NCBI RefSeq assembly: GCF_016906535.1
Contig: NC_057384.1
Coordinates: forward strand, 310,001-374,000
Length of the DNA stretch: 64,000 bases
Source: Rhizoctonia solani
Taxonomy: Eukaryota > Basidiomycota > Agaricomycetes > Cantharellales > Ceratobasidiaceae
Reading direction: 5' to 3'
Part shown: positions 5,414 through 43,500 of the stretch, piece after piece
Layout of the letters: each line of letters starts with the position of its first letter
How positions within the stretch are numbered: the first letter of the stretch is position 1
Made by a program: the position numbers and the translations under genes
The notes under the pieces: model-generated
Told to the model about the DNA's origin: nothing
Database searches by the model: none
The model's input: the letters and a program-made list of their open reading frames with translations, nothing else

Positions 5414-7814
5414 ATGGATTTTGACATTATCCCGTTTGAAGTACGAGCCTACGAGGTTGGATGACTTTATACTGGCTAAATGATTTCATAGGATATCCAA
5501 GGGGACTGGAGAAGATTAGGGTCCGGGTCTTTTGGAAATGTATACAAAGGTCAGTCTTTTGTGTGGGAATTAATCAAGGCTCATATCGACTGTGCAGGAG
5601 TCTATTTGGGCATCGATGTAGCAATTAAGGAGGTCTTACCCTCAAAGGACTATGATGTCGCAAAGTACTTTGAGCGAGAATGGCGCTTGATGAAGTACGC
5701 CCCATGATCTATTTATGCTTGGTCTCGACTCATCATACCACCTCTAGGGAAGCCCGCCATCCCAATGTCGTTCTGTTTCTTGGATTGTCCCGTGCACCAC
5801 CCCCCGACAACCGAATCTTTATTGTTTCCGAATTTATCGACAACGGGAATCTTCGTCAGTTGATTCACGATACGCGACAACCCCTTGAGTGGCCACTTCG
5901 TTTATCTGTCCTTACGGATATTGCGAGAGCGATGGCCTACCTACATGCGCGTCGCTGTATCCACCGGGACCTCAAAGGCGAGAACTTGTTGATGACGGCG
6001 AACGGTCGCGTCAAGGTCACCGATTTTGGTTTTGCAAGAATTGCTGCTAGGAACGATGATGAAATGAGGCGCCTGACATTCTGCGGCACGGACAGCTATA
6101 TGAGCCCAGAGATCCTTAAAGGGGATGAATTTGATCTCCCGACTGATGTGTTCTCGATGGGTGTAATATTTTGCGAAGTCATCGCTCGTAAACTCGCGGA
6201 TGACTATGTGTTCAAGGTAAGTAATTCAACGTGCAGTATGATCCTGCTTTGACGTATTTTCTAGCGCTCAGCTCCGGATTGGGGAATGGACCCTGATGAA
6301 CTCAAGACTCGTGCTTCACCAGGATGTCCTCCTGAGCTTGTTGCTCTGGCTCTAGATATGTGTGCGGTCGATCCTCATGCCCGACCCTCTATGCGCGAAG
6401 TACTAGCTCGTCTTCGAACGATCGAACTTGGTGTGCTTGAGAAAGCTGGTGACGCGCATGTAGGAAGTGTCAAATTCTTCACAGCTGGACGCAAGCGACC
6501 AGGGCCAGCCCTCCGCATACCCAGTTTTGGTATGGGGGTTGGGAGTGAAATACGCAACAAGGATGGTGATGCCGAGTTAGACACCAAGCATGAAGCAGAC
6601 GCGGGCATAGGATCAGACAAGGAGCTCGATGACGCGGTCCGCAGCCTCGAGAATATTCGCATCAGCAAGGGTCCAGCCAATATTTTACCTCCTGAACACG
6701 GTTATACGCCTGCGTCTGAGAAAAGTCGATGGGAATCGCCGAGATGGGATGGGAATTCGATGTATTATACCCAACGCTCGGGTGACTTTGGTAAGATTGA
6801 GTCCATGTCGAAGGTAGTATATACACCTTACGGCCATGACATAGGTTACATTCCCAGCGAGCCAGGGTCCGACTCGACGTCACCTCTGTTGCACGAGACC
6901 CCGAATCCGGAAATAGACAATACTCACTCTCAATTATCGAGTTACAGTGAGACGGTGGTACAAATGCATAGGGGAGATCTGGGAACTTCAACTCCTTCGG
7001 TCAATACTGCTGTTCCTTCCGAGCTTCCTGCCACTGCTGCTTCTCATTCATCTCCTCAAAATTCAGTATCTGTTTTAACCGTTCGGGCTTCACCTGTGAT
7101 CACTACCAATGCGCTGCACGGACCAGCTATCCAATCCGAATCTTCATCCGTACACTAAATGACGCTGCCGCGGCTTCGAGGATTTTACAGGTCGATCCCA
7201 ATCAGGTATCCAAGATGTCGATGGATAGCTATCACACCGCATCATCTGCAATTACCTTACCAGCGCCTACCACCGACTCGGTTGCTCTGGGATCTATAGC
7301 CGCAGCAACAGAGGGCTCGACCGTCACGACCCGCCAAGTGGAAACGGAACCTTCGCTCATTCATCGATTCACGCTTATCAAGCCTGGTTCCACGCGCAGA
7401 GGATCCGTCACCTTTACTCCTGCCTCAAACGGCCGTGGGGCTAGCCCTCCTCCACCTGATAGCGCTCCAGGGTGGAGTCCGTTCGAATTCTTTTTCGGAA
7501 GTGGATATAGCGCCAAGTGTGACTTGTGCACGAAGCGTCTCGGTTGGGGTTGGAAACCCGTCTTGGAATGTGATGATTGTGGAATGAGGTACGTAATTTG
7601 CCTGTCAAAATAAGAAAGTAGGGTATTAATTTATGTCACGTCGATCAGGGCTCATATCAAGTGTGGAGAATTCGCACCAAGGGATTGTGGACTCCGAGGA
7701 CCAAGGCACGCTAGCCCTCCACCTTTCCCTGCATCGCCCACTTCGCCCACGTCGCCCAAATTCAAGCCGAACGTCAGGCGTAGGTCTGGAGAGGGTGCTA
7801 CAGCCTCGGCATGA
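5414..7814 (+). CDS. TKL/LISK-type protein kinase with C-terminal C1-like zinc finger
   Basis: Seven exons: 5414–5440, 5492–5549, 5598–5694, 5748–6216, 6265–7149, 7191–7588 and 7649–7814. They sum to 2100 nt, giving 699 aa. The N-terminal kinase domain has a Gly loop (LGSGSFGNVYKG), VAIKEV lysine, catalytic loop CIHRDLKGENLL, DFGFARI, a GTDSYMSPEIL activation segment and the PSMREVLARL end typical of LIM-kinase-like TKL kinases. A roughly 300-residue Ser/Thr/Pro-rich linker follows. Near the C-terminus is a Cys/His cluster (CDLC…CDDCGMRAHIKC…C) consistent with a C1-type zinc finger placed after, not before, the kinase. The RDLKGEN loop fits Ser/Thr or dual specificity. The 41 nt intron at 7150–7190 is the shortest in the gene. 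Substrate and pathway are unknown. Confidence 0.88.
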
Positions 7815-23122: not shown

Positions 23123-23710
23123 ATGACGTTCTGGTCGAGCCTGTTCCCTACGCTCCACGCAGACGAGGAGCCCCCCAAGGAAGAGGAAGCTCAGGCTGAG
23201 GAGGAGGAAGAGGAAGAGGAGCCCGAGGATGATGTGCATTTATCCCCTACAATCTCTCCCCATCGAGTTAAATGTCATTTGCAGCCTCTTCCCGAGTTGC
23301 GTGAGGAGTGCAAGCAGACTGCCGCGTGCTCTGGGCTAGATAAGCACTTTGCGCATTGCACCGAAAAGGTCACGTCCGGTCAGGGGTTCAAGGGTGAAGA
23401 TTGCGTCGAGGAATTGTGAGTGCCCTTTTCTTTTCCATTTCATTTTAATTCACCTGTTGATCAATTGGATTGGCAGCTGTAAGTGACAGGTTTTAGATGA
23501 AGAGAATATGTCTAACAAGAACTGTTTGACGCGTTGGTTGGTTAGTCCAGTGAGTATTTTGTATCTTTATGCAATGATCTACACACTGATCCGCATCTAG
23601 CCTCATGCACTGCGTAGACGTACGTCCATCCACACCACTGACAACGCTCATCTCACCCACACCTCACACAGAACTGCGTCGCCCCAAAACTATTCAGCAA
23701 ACTCCGCTAG
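23123..23710 (+). CDS. QCR6: Cytochrome bc1 complex hinge subunit (Qcr6/UQCRH)
   Basis: Six exons: 23123–23233, 23285–23415, 23477–23478, 23546–23549, 23601–23619 and 23672–23710, total 306 nt, 101 aa. A Glu-rich acidic N-terminal half (residues about 12–37) precedes the hinge domain PLPELREECKQTAACSGL, KHFAHCTEKV and GFKGEDCVEE, then FFHLMHCVDNCVAPKLFSKLR at the end. The paired cysteines of the helical hairpin are all present. The family stabilises cytochrome c1–cytochrome c interaction at the inner-membrane surface. Exons 3 and 4 are just CT and TCCA, each flanked by AG and GT; together they encode part of FFH and are the only way I found to reach the conserved EEFFHLMHC. ATG 23123 is the first Met before the acidic stretch. 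Confidence 0.9.
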
Positions 23711-29817: not shown

Positions 29818-29917
29818 TGCCACGAACCTGGATTGAACAGGTGACCTGTAGATTGCTACCCAGCAAGTCTCCTTGCTTAGCTTCAGTCTAACGCTCTCCC
29901 AGCTGAGCTACCGCGGC
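29818..29917 (-). tRNA. tRNA-Phe (anticodon GAA) with 27-nt intron
   Basis: The minus strand folds as a cloverleaf of 73 exonic nt: acceptor GCCGCGG pairing with TCGTGGC (two G·T pairs), D stem GCTC/GAGC, anticodon loop CTGAAGA with anticodon GAA, and T stem ACCTG/CAGGT around TTCAATC. Discriminator is A. The intron, 29854–29880, sits one base 3' of the anticodon (position 37/38), the standard eukaryotic site. The outermost anticodon-stem pair is a T·C mismatch. No CCA is encoded, as expected for a nuclear gene. Confidence 0.93.
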
Positions 29918-37522: not shown

Positions 37523-40500
37523 ATGGAGGTGTCATACTGGGATAACCTGAATGCATTCCTTGCCAAGGCTCTGCGTGAACCGACAAGGCAACTGGAACAA
37601 GAACTATACTACAAGCTTGAAGATGCAAAACCCCGCTTCCTGGCGCTATTGGATGTGCCACCACGGAACTCGGGGGAAGAGGCAGAACTCAAGAGTGGTA
37701 TGTCCTATTTATTTCTGCTTGTATCTCCTCATTGTTCCCTAGGCAAAGCAACGATCAGCGGTGTACAAAAAACATACAATAATGACTTTGTTCAAGTCGC
37801 TCTCTTTCTCGCTCAGCAACTCGACTGCTCCGAGCGCCATGTCGCTGGCATACTAGACCATGTCTTATCTGATGATCCCGTGGAGAGTGCGTTACGAGCT
37901 GTCCAGCAGTTCTACGAGAGCAGACAGAATGTTCTCTCTACTCTTCAGCTCATACTCGACAGCGCCATGGGCATGAACATGGTTGAGCCCACTATACGCA
38001 CGAGACTCGTCGACTATGTCATTGGCCTAGCCTCGACTGGAACATTGGCCGAGAAGATTCTCAAGCAGATCGACACGAGTGGTGCTCTCATGCAGCGCCA
38101 GATGGCCAACCAGCGGAATGCGGGATCTACAACTGCCATTGGTATGTTGGCTATTGTCATTTCGACCCGTGCTAATGTGTTTGCAGGAACCGGCTTTTCG
38201 GCTGATCTCTATGCCCAAGTCGTCTCGGCTCTCCAATCCGAACGGCAGCAACTGGGTAATTTGCTGTTTGTGCTTGCAGGCTCGGGCGAACTGCGAGGCT
38301 CAGAAGTCGCCAAGATGGTTTCGTGGATATCCACTGTCTCACCAGATGAACCTATCATGGTCTATGTTCTCGCCGCGTGCCTCGCCGCTTTCGATGCTTC
38401 CTCACAGGTCGCTTCGGAAACTTCGTTCGTCAATCTCATCAAAACCGAACTCGCCAAACCCACATGGAAGATCCCCGAAACAAAAGCAGTCCTGACTATC
38501 AAGTGGTGTCTCTTTCTCATCGAAGCCTCCAATGGCGACGGACGCACTACCGACGCATACTCGGAATCCGATATCGAAAAACTTGTTACCGACTCGGTCC
38601 GTGCCGACGCCTTCCGCTACTTATCTGTGCTCCTCCACTCCTCGAGACCCCTGGACGCTGTGTCTCAAGATACGCTCGAGCTTGAATACGACCCTCTCCC
38701 TACTCCTACACCCGTCGATGGCCTTTTCTACAAATACTTGTTGAAGCAGGTCGAAATATTTTTGATCGCATTTGTCACCAGTCTCTCTCCAGTCCTCCGA
38801 AGAATGCGCCACGCAGATGAAGATACCAGCTCTCTCGCCGCATCTCGCTCCCAAGCCCCCCAAGCCAGCCCACATCCGTCACGCCTGGCCGACTTTTTCG
38901 TTCTCATAGCTCTTGTTTATTCTGATCAATCTCCGGACGAGGGTCTCAAGTGGTGGGATGACCGGCTGTACTCTTTCCTTCGATGGAGTGCCGAAGCCCG
39001 TGTCCCCTCATTGCTTAAACCACTATACAACATGTTTGGCTCTCTGGCACGCGGACAGAGCTGCGCAACCTATGCCTACAACTTTTTGTCTACCAACGGC
39101 GGACAGCGGGCTGGAACTACGGGCTGGTGCTCCTGGGCTGGTCTGTTTGGATCTCTCGACTGGTTGCTCACGTCTGTTCCAGACCAACGAACTGTGGACT
39201 CGGCGCTCGGAGGACGAGAACGCCAACCTCTGCCCGTTGATCCTGAGGAAATTCGCTCGATCATGGCCTTTCTCAGGGTACTCAGAGTCGTAGCTCGATA
39301 TTCGACAGCAGCTCGAGCGGCCCTTCTCGAAAACACACAATACAGGGCCGTGGCGGTCATGCTCGACCTCGTCCGTTCTCCCGTCGCCTTGGAACTCAAG
39401 GGCAAACTGTTCGACACTTTGGCAGCCTTTTGCGATGGGCCAGAACTGGGAGGTGAAGTCGCCCGATTGATGTGGGTCAGCCTGGAGCGATACGAAGTGT
39501 TGCCTGTGCGGTCCACAACCACGATGACGACCGGCGGGTGGAAGAAGAGTCGAGGTGTCCCTGCTGAACTGGAAGAAATCGAGGCCCCCGCGCGGACATA
39601 CCCCGCCACACTATCCTTCCTCCATCTCCTCAATGCGCTAGTCCCCTTCCCACCCGACAACCTCGGCTCGGGCCACCGTGTGGTCGGAACTGGCCCGTAC
39701 GTCAAGTTTGTGGTCGAGGACGTGCTGCTCAAGATCGACGCTCGTGAATACGCAGATCCGAGCGAGCGATGGAAGGTCACCGATGCCGCCCTCGAGTTTG
39801 TTCAACGCAGCTTGGACGGGTTTGATTTGGCTACGTTGGCCATTGGGGGTCAGGACGCTGTTCAAAAATTAGTGCAACACCCTGGGTTTGGCGTCTTGCT
39901 CCGTGTACTTGTCGACTCCGCAACCCGAGACGTCTTGTTTGGTATACTCGCTCTATCCGAATCGAACCAGGACCCGTACTTCGTTTCGTCCCTCGTGAGG
40001 ACGTTGAGGATCATCTCTCGCACGCTGGAGATTCAAGACTTGTTTATTGATTTGCTCATACCCTCTGCTCGTGCACTTTCGCTGGATGTGGATATCCCCG
40101 CGGTCGTCTCGACTGCCGACCAAATACTCCTGTGGCGCCCCGAAAGCGTCGTTCATATTGCCGGACTGGTCAACTACCGCCTATCACGCGAGGTCGTCCT
40201 TCTCTCTGTCAAACTCACGACCAAGCTCTCCCAGTCAACCTACTTCAACTCGATGGAAACCAGTGCGCTGTTCCCGCACCGCGTGAGCCGGTTGTTGGGT
40301 ATCCTCGGAGACGCGCCCACCGACGGATACGTGCGCGGGCTCAGGCTCGAGCCGGGCGAAGAGCAGCAGTCGGTGGAGGACCAAGTGCGGGATGCGATAA
40401 TCGATTTCTTGCTGGTGAATACGCTCCCCACGTCCCCCTCACCCAACTTTGCGCATCTCCTGCTTGGCTTCGACGTCAGTCACTCAACTACGGGCGGTGC

Positions 40501-43500
40501 GATGCCGATTCATGATTCACGTGCGATCGGAGCAAGGGAGACTTGTCTCGGTGTAGTGCTCGATATGGTCGGCGAAGGGATTCCACGACTCGATCGAAAA
40601 AAGACCAGAGCGGGGAAAACGGTGCAAGACCCGCTATTCGAGCGGCACCCCGTGTTTGCTGAAAAGTGCTACCGGCTCATCCACCAACTGTGCACCCACT
40701 CGCTCACGTTCGGGACCACGATCCGCTACCTCCGGACCCACGAAGACTTTTTCGCGCGTCAGCTGAGCGTCGTCTCGATGCGCCCACCGAGCGGGGACGA
40801 ACCCGACGGCACGATCCGACTAGTCGACAACTCGTCGTCGCGACGAGCTGCTTAGCCCTGGCTGCGTTTTTGAGGCTCCGAAGTTGGGTCCTCGACTTGG
40901 TCTCGCTCGAGTTGCATATCATGTCCGGCGTTGAACAGGACCCGCGCGCCTCGCGAATCTTGTCCATCTTGTTCCAAAAGCCGTCGGCTGGCTCAGGGCC
41001 GGGGACTGAAAACGCGCTGACTATTTTCGAAGAAGCGATGAATGTGCCTGCGCCCGGACAGGGCCTCATGCGTGTGCTCGAGCTCTTGGAGTCGCTCGCG
41101 TTCCATTGGACAGACGCCAAGGCGATCGAGCCCGTTCAGCTTTCATTATTTGCCGACCTCAATTTCGACTCGTGTTTGCGTCCGGACCCGACGGGATGCT
41201 ATGTCGTGGACGCCACTGCGCTCTTGAATCTCCTCACCCAACATAAACGAAATCTTCAAAACAAGGGTACTTGCCCACGCCCGAACACCACGCGCAGCTC
41301 AAGGCCGAGATGCGGTACTTGCTCGAGTGTTGTGCGCTGGAGAACAATCGACGGTTGATCGCCCATGCACGCGCGGCGGGGTACGAATCGTGGACCCGGT
41401 TGTGCAATGTGGCCTTGACGAGGTGTTTCGATTCCCTCCCGGACGAACATAGAGAGATGATCCTATTCGACGTTGTCCAAGCTTTACCGCCCGTCATCCT
41501 CTCAGCCGCCGAACCCGAAACGGCCATTTACTTATGCGAAACGCTGCTTTCCCTAGTTGCTAAACTCCGAGACGACCGGCACCACCAAGTTGTTCTTCAG
41601 TCGATTGTGGATGACCCAGTCGCTGCTACGTTACCCCCCGAGCGATTGAACGCGCTGTTGGGTGCGATTATGGACTGTGTTCTCCAGCCTGGGACGACGG
41701 AGCGTCAGAGAGGAAACTTGTACAGCGCGATGGTGCATTACGTCCAACTTGCGTTCTCGGCTGAAGAGAGAAGTTCACGAGAACACTCCAAGCTCGGTCA
41801 ATCGCAATCAAAACTCGCCCAATCCCAGTCTAAACTCGCCCAATCCCGACTGGACACATCAGCCGCCAACGCCGTCGTCCTCTTTGGCTCGTCTCCGAAC
41901 CCGACGACGGGCCGACGCTCGGGGCTCGAATCCAGCACGCTTCTGGTGCTCAACAAGTTTGTCGACCGACTCGTCCCGCTTGTCTGCCGAGACGCCATCG
42001 ACGGGTCCGACGTTTGGAAAACGATCGCGTTTACGTTTTTGGAGTCGCTGGTCAGGGTGTCGAGGATGGAAAAGGCGCATCGGGTGTTGGGGATCATGTC
42101 CCGTCAAGGATTCTTGGCTCATTTCGTGCAGAGCGTGGCGGAGAGCGAGGACCAGATTTTGGCTGTTCTAAAGCCTGATCCAGGTGCGATTTCCTCTTTC
42201 CCTTTAATGAAAATGTGCTAACTTTTGGTTTATTGTCGGTGGTATTAGAGAGTTTGAATGCGTTGTATGTGTACGAGGCCAAGATGTCCTTGCTTATCAA
42301 GATTGCGCAAACGAGACAGGGGGCGGACCGGTTACAGGACGCAAGGGTGCTTAGCGTCTTGTCCCAGTGCGACTTTTTGGATGCCAGGCCCGAAAAGGAT
42401 GTTGATTTCCGAAGTGAGTGCGAGTTGGAGAACGGCGAATGGGTACTAACTGTGGCAATAGATCTAGAATCATTCCTCCCCTCTGCACTTGAAAGGTACC
42501 ACCAATTCTTGTACCGGCTCTCGAAATCGCAACGAGCGTAGTATCCACGATTGGCTCCGACTCGCCGAATGTGGCCAAGCAGGTGGGCCATTATTGATTA
42601 ATCCTTTTTCAGGTTTGGTTGCTGACGACAAGCAGGCACTTAATTTCATTCTTGCGCACCGAGAAACGTGCTTGATGTTGTTCACGACCGAGGAGACTTA
42701 TCTCCCTCTAGCAAGTGTTCGAGAGTTGCATTTGTTCGTGGCATTGTGCGCTTTGGTAGCACCTCATGTGGATTCTAAAGATTTGGTGGGTTTCCTAATT
42801 GTTTCTCAGAGTGTCATTGTCTAATTATGGACCAGAATGATGCTCGTTCGTTCGGCCAAGTTCATGCTGCTGTGCTCGAGCTCGCTTCTCGTATTTTGAG
42901 CCAAGGAGGCTGGAGAATGAATGTTGTGCCCGTGACAGAGTCGGAGATGATCGATGCGAACCGAAAAGCCAAGGGTAAGTCGATAAATTTAAGACACTTG
43001 AAGCATCGACTGATCGATTTGGCAGGCATTGCGCACAGTAAAATGTCTGTGTTTGATCGACGAGCTCGAGAAGCGACGGATTACCTTCACAAGTGGATCT
43101 TGGTCTATTTATCTGCTATTAGCGAGAGGTCTATTGGTACGTGTTTTTGCATACTCTTTCAGAACTTGGCTTATGGAGATGTTTTAGGCACCACCGAATC
43201 GTTCCACCCTGTGCTGACTGCTGTTGCATCGACCGCACGTGAACCAGCCGCCATTGCCACCGGCAAACCATACCTTGCCGACGCGATCGCTGCTCTAAAA
43301 GCCAGTGTAGCCCGTTTATCATCGTTATTGGCCGAGCTCAAAGAGATACCAACCCAAACTGGGAGACTGAGCTTGGATGAGGTTGATGAGGTAAGCTTTT
43401 GGACTTTCTAAATTGGGTTCGGTATTAATCTCGGCACGAGTAGATTGTCCAAGCTGCCCAAGTCTCATTCTTCGACGATCTTGACATTCCACAACGGCGT

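What the first reader, a model, noticed from the sequence alone, without database searches (positions are those of the whole stretch)
23416..23600. Consecutive 2-nt and 4-nt micro-exons in QCR6
Seen: between the exon ending GAGGAATT (23415) and the exon starting CCTCATGCAC (23601) lie CT at 23477–23478, framed by GGCAG and GTAAGT, and TCCA at 23546–23549, framed by GTTAG and GTGAGT. Joining TT+CT+TCCA+C gives codons for Phe-Phe-His-Leu, completing the conserved EEFFHLMHC of Qcr6; skipping both gives EEFLMHC, and including one alone breaks the frame. The exon total becomes 306 nt. Exons this small are too short for exon definition and would need intron definition or recursive, stepwise splicing. 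Two in a row would be very unusual.
Basis: partly seen in the sequence, partly recalled or inferred. Interest (0 to 1): 0.88.

Follow-up and report, generated by a model that had tools for sequence, protein, structure and literature searches.

The report
Two tiny consecutive exons in QCR6
A respiratory-chain gene of a mushroom-class fungus appears to need two exons of only 2 and 4 letters, side by side, to encode two conserved amino acids, and many public gene models of its relatives go wrong at exactly this place.

Summary
QCR6 (complex III hinge protein, UCR_hinge) at 23123-23710 (+) needs CT (23477-23478) and TCCA (23546-23549), between GT-AG introns of 61, 67 and 51 nt, to read EEFFHLMHC. 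Of six in-frame chains in the gap only this one restores Phe-His, and it scores best (21.6 against 8.6 bits). A two-microexon FH/YH chain arises in 24 of 20,000 shuffles with bare GT/AG, in 0 with +5G and YAG.

The public model of this gene (P0002, 119 aa) is reproduced letter for letter by skipping both exons and keeping intron 5. Of 139 annotated Agaricomycete relatives seen, 111 depart from Phe-His here, 69 by losing exactly two residues; 61 of 64 environmental sequences, 20 of 20 Tremellomycetes and 7 of 7 Pucciniomycotina are intact. The faulty models betray the hidden splice sites (Met turned Ile; F-C-K/E/T; V-H or D-H), so the pair is probably old and widespread in the class.

Most likely both are constitutive exons, spliced one intron at a time. 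No RNA was available. Exons of 1-5 nt are known; a conserved consecutive 2+4-nt pair is a new variant.

The parts
23123..23233 (+). QCR6 exon 1 (111 nt, from ATG)
   Evidence: Spliced translation; PF02320 match of the joined protein
23234..23284 (+). Intron 1 (51 nt, GTGCAT...TTGCAG)
   Evidence: weakest donor of the five (3.4 bits) and no YTRAY motif
23285..23415 (+). QCR6 exon 2 (131 nt, ends ...GAGGAATT, phase 2)
   Evidence: PF02320 match in the genome scan
23416..23476 (+). Intron 2 (61 nt, GTGAGT...TGGCAG)
   Evidence: retention gives EEL-stop
23477..23478 (+). Microexon 1, CT (2 nt): third base of the first Phe codon and first base of the second
   Evidence: F-C-x read-through signature in relatives
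23479..23545 (+). Intron 3 (67 nt, GTAAGT...GGTTAG, phase 1)
   Evidence: retention gives EEFCK-stop
23546..23549 (+). Microexon 2, TCCA (4 nt): rest of the second Phe codon and two bases of the His codon
   Evidence: V-H / D-H read-through signature in relatives; TCCA-only pattern of public model P0011
23550..23600 (+). Intron 4 (51 nt, GTGAGT...ATCTAG, phase 2)
   Evidence: retention gives EEFFQ-stop
23601..23619 (+). QCR6 exon 5 (19 nt, CCTCATGCACTGCGTAGAC)
23620..23671 (+). Intron 5 (52 nt, GTACGT...ACACAG); kept in the public model P0002
23672..23710 (+). QCR6 exon 6 (39 nt, to the stop codon TAG)

Best explanation
CT and TCCA are two real, normally included exons of the QCR6 gene, for which I found one intact copy. 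The three flanking introns (61, 67, 51 nt) are of the usual size for this genome and each has its own donor, acceptor and branch-point-like motif, so each can be recognised across the intron (intron definition). Since 2 or 4 nt cannot hold two splicing complexes at once, neighbouring introns must be removed one after another; each removal leaves the next intron with usable exon ends. The result supplies Phe-His of EE(F/L/M)FH(L/M)MHC. The pair probably goes back to an early Agaricomycete, and automatic annotation misses it because such exons fall below what gene finders and read aligners handle. Shown here: sequence, frame, uniqueness of the chain, pattern of annotation errors. Inferred: inclusion in RNA of this organism, stepwise removal and its order, age.
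For: Only chain of six in frame that gives Phe-His, best splice-site score; chance small; three of three flanking donors are GTRAGT against 6 of 26 reference introns. Full protein 102.6 bits to UCR_hinge against 88.5 for the joint skip. Public model of this very gene reproduced letter for letter by skipping both and keeping intron 5. 111 of 139 annotated Agaricomycetes depart at the site, 61 of 64 environmental sequences are intact. Met 0 of 69 and Ile 11 of 69 in minus-two models against 28 of 89 and 1 of 89 in intact ones. Read-throughs that expose the 2-nt exon's donor (10 of 11) and the 4-nt exon's acceptor (9 of 13). One match above cut-off to the family in the genome.
Against: No transcript of this organism was seen. 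By weight matrix the three donors are ordinary (8.2, 6.3, 5.9 bits; reference 1.3 to 11.0), two of them below the middle of the reference set. YTRAY motifs are no strong sign: 14 of 26 reference introns have one near the 3' end. 28 of 139 annotated Agaricomycetes are intact, so the difficulty is not universal, or some lineages lost an intron. Four of 13 and one of 11 read-through models do not fit. That environmental sequences are cDNA is inferred; their contigs were not read. For human MPC1 the authors argue for exon definition, not intron definition (PMC9929638, passages).
Confidence: 0.92

Rival explanations
1. Both microexons are always skipped; the real protein has EEFLMHC and CT/TCCA are chance matches inside one 185-nt intron.
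For: In frame; it is what many public models show (69 of 139 annotated Agaricomycetes lack exactly two residues), including P0001 and P0002. The joint-skip protein still scores 88.5 bits to the family.
Against: 61 of 64 environmental sequences have the two residues. Met turned to Ile in skipped models means the models, not the genes, lost them. Lentinula edodes is annotated both ways. Chance of the chain is small.
Confidence: 0.03
2. Phe-His comes from a different exon chain, for example one 6-nt exon, in the same gap.
For: Two other 6-nt candidates exist with bare GT/AG, CTGTAA and TGACAG. Heliocybe P0119 reads S-F-H, as a single 6-nt exon after AG would.
Against: These candidates encode Cys-Asn and Asp-Ser, not Phe-His, and score 6.3 and 0.7 bits against 21.6. 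The read-through signatures in several relatives need a splice site inside the six bases.
Confidence: 0.01
3. The pair is a regulated cassette: both included in one isoform, both skipped in frame in another, giving two hinge proteins.
For: Joint skipping keeps the frame while single skipping breaks it; switch-like microexons exist in fungi (Trichoderma Xlr2, PMC11121469, passages).
Against: No second isoform among the environmental sequences: 61 of 64 intact, 0 of 64 minus two, though these are few and similarity-ranked. The skip removes residues between conserved cysteines, which probably harms the fold (inference).
Confidence: 0.04

Closest known systems
Single-nucleotide exon of Arabidopsis APC11 (PMC4674806; abstract and Discussion read)
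   Same: Constitutive exon far below exon-definition size; authors propose intron definition plus stepwise removal
   Different: One microexon of 1 nt, in a plant; experimentally shown
Single-nucleotide exon of Fusarium CYP621A (PMC12940212; parts 1 and 2 of 3 of the text read)
   Same: Fungal, restores a conserved motif, gene models wrong at the site, supported by 18 RNA reads in that paper
   Different: Ascomycete, one microexon, in a P450 gene
Adjacent microexons of 5 and 12 nt in a plant Peptidase M1 gene (PMC8831610, PMC11096116; passages read)
   Same: Two consecutive, conserved microexons missed by annotation
   Different: Larger exons, plants and Zygnema; not both below 5 nt
Human MPC1 4-nt exon (PMC9929638; passages read)
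   Same: Constitutive non-triplet microexon in a mitochondrial-protein gene; shortened to 2, 1 or 0 nt it is still spliced in two steps in a minigene
   Different: Single, between introns over 12 and 3 kb; authors argue for exon definition. The same paper lists human 2-nt exons only in GRK6 and SEPT7
Human RPS24 consecutive microexons of 3, 18 and 22 nt (PMC11162997; passages read)
   Same: Consecutive microexons
   Different: Alternatively spliced, combined in various ways
Microexons of Phanerochaete P450 genes, shortest 6 nt (PMC1184071; passages read)
   Same: Agaricomycete, small exons between small introns
   Different: Not below 6 nt in the passages seen; no consecutive sub-codon pair mentioned there

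Membership tests
Microexon (internal exon of at most about 15-30 nt) | Internal exon bounded by AG and GT of two introns | tested here: met
   Both exons; splice-site scores
Microexon (internal exon of at most about 15-30 nt) | Included in mature RNA | not testable with these tools
   No RNA; indirect support from environmental proteins (61 of 64 intact)
Microexon (internal exon of at most about 15-30 nt) | Conserved in relatives | tested here: inconclusive
   Read only through protein models: splice-site signatures in several orders; no DNA of relatives
QCR6 / UCR_hinge (PF02320) | Match over the whole profile above the curated cut-off | tested here: met
   102.6 bits against cut-off 27.2, profile 1-65 of 65; 35 PDB sequences matched at E up to 1, nearly all named complex III subunit 6 or hinge protein
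Recursive splicing (ratchet) site | 3' and 5' splice site abut with no exon left in the mRNA | tested here: not met
   2 and 4 nt lie between the sites and are needed in the frame; works like it in being stepwise (inference)
Stwintron (intron nested in a splice site of another; definition recalled) | An internal intron splits the donor or acceptor of an outer intron | tested here: not met
   Each of introns 2, 3 and 4 has its own complete GT and AG, separated by coding bases

The most novel reading that the evidence does not exclude
A pair of sub-codon exons (2 nt, then 4 nt; three introns inside two codons) was fixed in QCR6 early in Agaricomycete history and has been kept in Cantharellales, Boletales, Agaricales and Polyporales, faithfully enough for a respiratory-chain gene, hidden by systematic misannotation.
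Probability: 0.78. Interest if true: 0.75.

Novelty: new variant of a known kind. Interest (0 to 1): 0.66.

Why it matters
It would be a natural, conserved test of how small exons can be and still be spliced faithfully: two consecutive exons too short for exon definition, each fatal to the frame if used alone. The order of intron removal and the part played by intron definition become testable in laboratory mushrooms. In practice, 111 of the 139 annotated Agaricomycete models seen here depart at this site, and the same error signatures may serve to find other hidden microexons from protein databases alone.

Tried and rejected
A de novo intron training set from long open frames gave no clear splice consensus and was dropped. 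It was replaced by introns lying between Actin and Ras profile fragments: 26 in all, six of them doubtful because their profile fragments do not join within one residue; all 26 entered the matrix used. The first sorting of relatives took the last CxEE match and misread Lentinula and others; it was replaced, where one Tremellomycete (P0126) is still misparsed although its sequence is intact.

Searches for relatives' DNA in viral contigs and genome contigs confirmed none. Secondary structure of the region is unremarkable (z 0.68, 153 of 200 shuffles fold as well), so help by a stem is not supported. A weak second UCR_hinge match on C6 (22.4 bits, below the cut-off, two stops) is no usable copy. 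A search for the spliced junction elsewhere in the genome was empty, which by the tool's own words shows nothing.

Full report
WHAT IS THERE. The window lies in a 40.7-Mb genome of 16 contigs, on contig C15 of 1,669,390 bases. Its nearest named relatives are Rhizoctonia solani, and a public R. solani protein, P0002, comes from a contig of exactly that length. The gene at 23123-23710 (+) is QCR6, the hinge subunit of complex III: 102.6 bits to PF02320 over the whole profile, with solved relatives. It has six exons of 111, 131, 2, 4, 19 and 39 nt and five GT-AG introns of 51, 61, 67, 51 and 52 nt. Introns interrupt the coding sequence after nt 111, 242, 244, 248 and 267, so four introns fall within 25 coding bases, three of them within six.

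IS IT MORE THAN CHANCE. I enumerated the chains of one or two microexons (total up to 12 nt, introns at least 42 nt) in the 185-nt gap: 16, of which six are in frame without a stop. Only CT + TCCA gives Phe-His, and its inner splice sites score 21.6 bits, the next chain 8.6. In 20,000 dinucleotide shuffles of the gap, 24 gave a two-microexon FH or YH chain with bare GT/AG, and none with a G at +5 and a YAG acceptor; in 40,000 genomic segments 14 and none. A single 6-nt exon giving FH or YH arose in 74 of 20,000 shuffles and 7 of 40,000 segments with bare GT/AG, and in 10 of 20,000 and 0 of 40,000 with the stricter sites. In 264 kb of this genome, both strands, a pair of 1-6-nt exons with YAG acceptors and GTRAGT donors at suitable spacing occurs once: here. 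Single YAG-(1-6 nt)-GTRAGT sites occur 45 times there, so one such site alone would mean little.

SPLICE SITES. A reference set of 26 introns between profile fragments of Actin and Ras genes in the same genome gives roughly AAG|GTRAGT...YAG. Six of the 26 have GTRAGT donors; all three introns that flank the microexons do. By full matrix score these three donors are ordinary: 8.2, 6.3 and 5.9 bits against 1.3 to 11.0 in the reference set, two of them below its middle, because the exon bases do not fit. Twenty of the 26 join their profile fragments within one residue (picked by eye); they are 47-104 nt long, median 55. Introns 2, 3 and 4 each hold YTRAY branch-point-like motifs near the 3' end, intron 1 none; 14 of the 26 reference introns hold one in the corresponding stretch, so this is weak evidence. 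Retention of intron 2, 3 or 4 meets a stop at once: EEL-stop, EEFCK-stop, EEFFQ-stop.

THE PUBLIC MODEL OF THIS GENE. Skipping both microexons and keeping intron 5 reproduces P0002 letter for letter, 119 aa. The public model thus misses the doublet and has a foreign C-terminus.

RELATIVES. Three protein searches gave 252 distinct proteins (best 120 of 247; all 89; best 120 of 321). I sorted them by the organism name given; clade and order assignments are recalled, not looked up. At the site EE-x-FH-(L/M)MHC: annotated Agaricomycetes, n = 139: 28 intact, 69 lacking exactly two residues, 12 of right length with other residues, 15 with extra residues, 15 truncated or frameshifted. Some of the 12 may be true variants. 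Environmental sequences, n = 64 (one of them a transcript of the MMETSP collection): 61 intact, 3 truncated or divergent. Tremellomycetes: 20 of 20 intact (19 by the script, P0126 by eye). Pucciniomycotina: 7 of 7. Ascomycota: 20 of 22. The lists are ranked by similarity, the lower ranks of two of them were not shown, and species and genera are repeated, so the fractions are not independent samples.

READING THE ERRORS. (a) If the exon before ends in NN and the exon after begins with C, skipping turns the third residue of EEx into NN+C, for example Met (ATG) into Ile (ATC). In minus-two models Met occurs in 0 of 69, in intact sequences in 28 of 89 (19 of 28 annotated Agaricomycetes, 9 of 61 environmental); Ile in 11 of 69 against 1 of 89 (Fisher p 1.4e-8 and 5e-4, not corrected for relatedness). 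Lentinula edodes is annotated both as EEMFHMMHC (P0107) and as EEIMMHC (P0225, P0227), though these proteins differ elsewhere too; species of Lactarius likewise. (b) A model that enters the 2-nt exon and runs on into intron 3 should read x-C-(NNG)-(T..), T|GT being Cys. Of 17 models with EExC, 11 run on; 10 of these 11 fit a GTNNGT donor and P0015 does not. The other six return to MMHC or LMHC after one residue and are not counted. For EELC and EEMC, running into intron 2 is a possible other reading; EEFC excludes it, since intron 2 begins with G and would give EEL. EEFC is seen in five of the 17: R. solani P0012 and P0017, Sparassis P0042, Taiwanofungus P0164, Trametes P0167. (c) A model that starts inside intron 3 and runs through the 4-nt exon should replace the first T of the Phe or Tyr codon by the G of AG, giving Val-His, or Asp-His where polypores have Tyr-His (P0028, P0046). 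Nine of 13 such models fit, the preceding codon being able to end in CA or TA: R. solani P0006, Suillus P0102 and P0105, Laccaria P0108, Mycena P0162, Tricholoma P0230, Plicaturopsis P0249 (V-H), Ganoderma P0103 and Trametes P0109 (D-H). P0077, P0119, P0237 and P0252 do not fit; P0041 and P0118, also with extra residues, have no such His. (d) The product of using TCCA alone, EEFPPHALRRQLRR, is the pattern of public model P0011. Together these recover the inner splice sites of both exons from different mistakes in several orders. That is the ground for thinking the doublet old; it rests on back-reading predicted proteins, not on DNA.

ENVIRONMENTAL SEQUENCES. P0007, P0008 and P0009 (contigs of 1.5-2.3 kb) resemble Ceratobasidiaceae and read EELFHLMHC; P0008 shares 90 of 102 aligned residues with annotated Ceratobasidium P0010, which reads EELLMHC. 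An unbroken frame over several intron sites on short contigs suggests cDNA; the contigs themselves were not read.

HOW IT PROBABLY WORKS. Introns of 51-67 nt are of usual length here, and intron definition can act on each by itself. Splicing complexes cannot sit on both sides of 2 nt at once, so removal should be stepwise; either order leaves intact sites for the next step. Guo and Liu argue the same for the 1-nt exon of APC11 (PMC4674806, Discussion). For human MPC1, minigenes with the 4-nt exon cut to 2, 1 or 0 nt are still spliced, and the 0-nt construct still gives both separate lariats; its authors, however, argue for exon definition (PMC9929638, passages). Order, speed and any regulated joint skip are unknown here. 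The alignment A1, made of sequences that I chose as intact, cannot show conservation of Phe-His; but the two best-matching chains of solved structures read FFHL at this place and the two animal-type chains shown keep the length with another residue for His. The two residues lie between conserved cysteines, so the joint skip probably harms the protein (inference).

NOVELTY. Exons of 1-5 nt are known in plants, animals and Fusarium (PMC4674806, PMC8831610, PMC9929638, PMC12940212), consecutive microexons in plants (5 and 12 nt; PMC8831610, PMC11096116) and human RPS24 (3, 18, 22 nt; PMC11162997), and microexons of 6 nt and more in Phanerochaete P450 genes (PMC1184071). What I read of each is given under Closest known systems. 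Ten literature searches listed no report of microexons in QCR6, nor of two consecutive exons of 4 nt or less. The library lacks most subscription journals, and only the top of each longer list was seen. I rate it a new variant of a known kind.

LIMITS. No transcript of this organism and no DNA of relatives could be read. The claim for the class rests on predicted proteins.

Noticed in passing
23123-23710 (+), protein P0002: The public protein of this gene (119 aa) skips both microexons and keeps intron 5, so its C-terminus is intron sequence in a shifted frame.
   Followed up: yes
23601-23619: A further small exon of 19 nt follows the doublet, so four introns fall within 25 coding bases.
   Followed up: partly
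P0119 (Heliocybe), P0237 and P0252 (Candolleomyces): These models keep F-H but carry extra residues before it, unlike the other read-throughs; perhaps an inner intron was lost there.
   Followed up: partly
Agaricomycete models with EEM (19 of 28 annotated intact ones): Intact annotated models are mostly of the EEM type, although environmental ones are mostly EEL (41 of 61); whether these lineages lost an intron is open.
   Followed up: no
L044, G000:C6:210496-210639 (-): A weak, stop-ridden UCR_hinge-like stretch (22.4 bits, below cut-off), perhaps a decayed copy or chance.
   Followed up: partly
29818-29917 (-): A tRNA matched by Rfam (45.9 bits) but not by ARAGORN; its 100-nt span suggests an intron.
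   Followed up: no
37523-42221 (+): Open frames matching the nuclear pore scaffold Nup192 (439.3 and 128.8 bits).
   Followed up: no
5680-6252 (+): Open frame matching protein kinase domains (123.8 bits).
   Followed up: no
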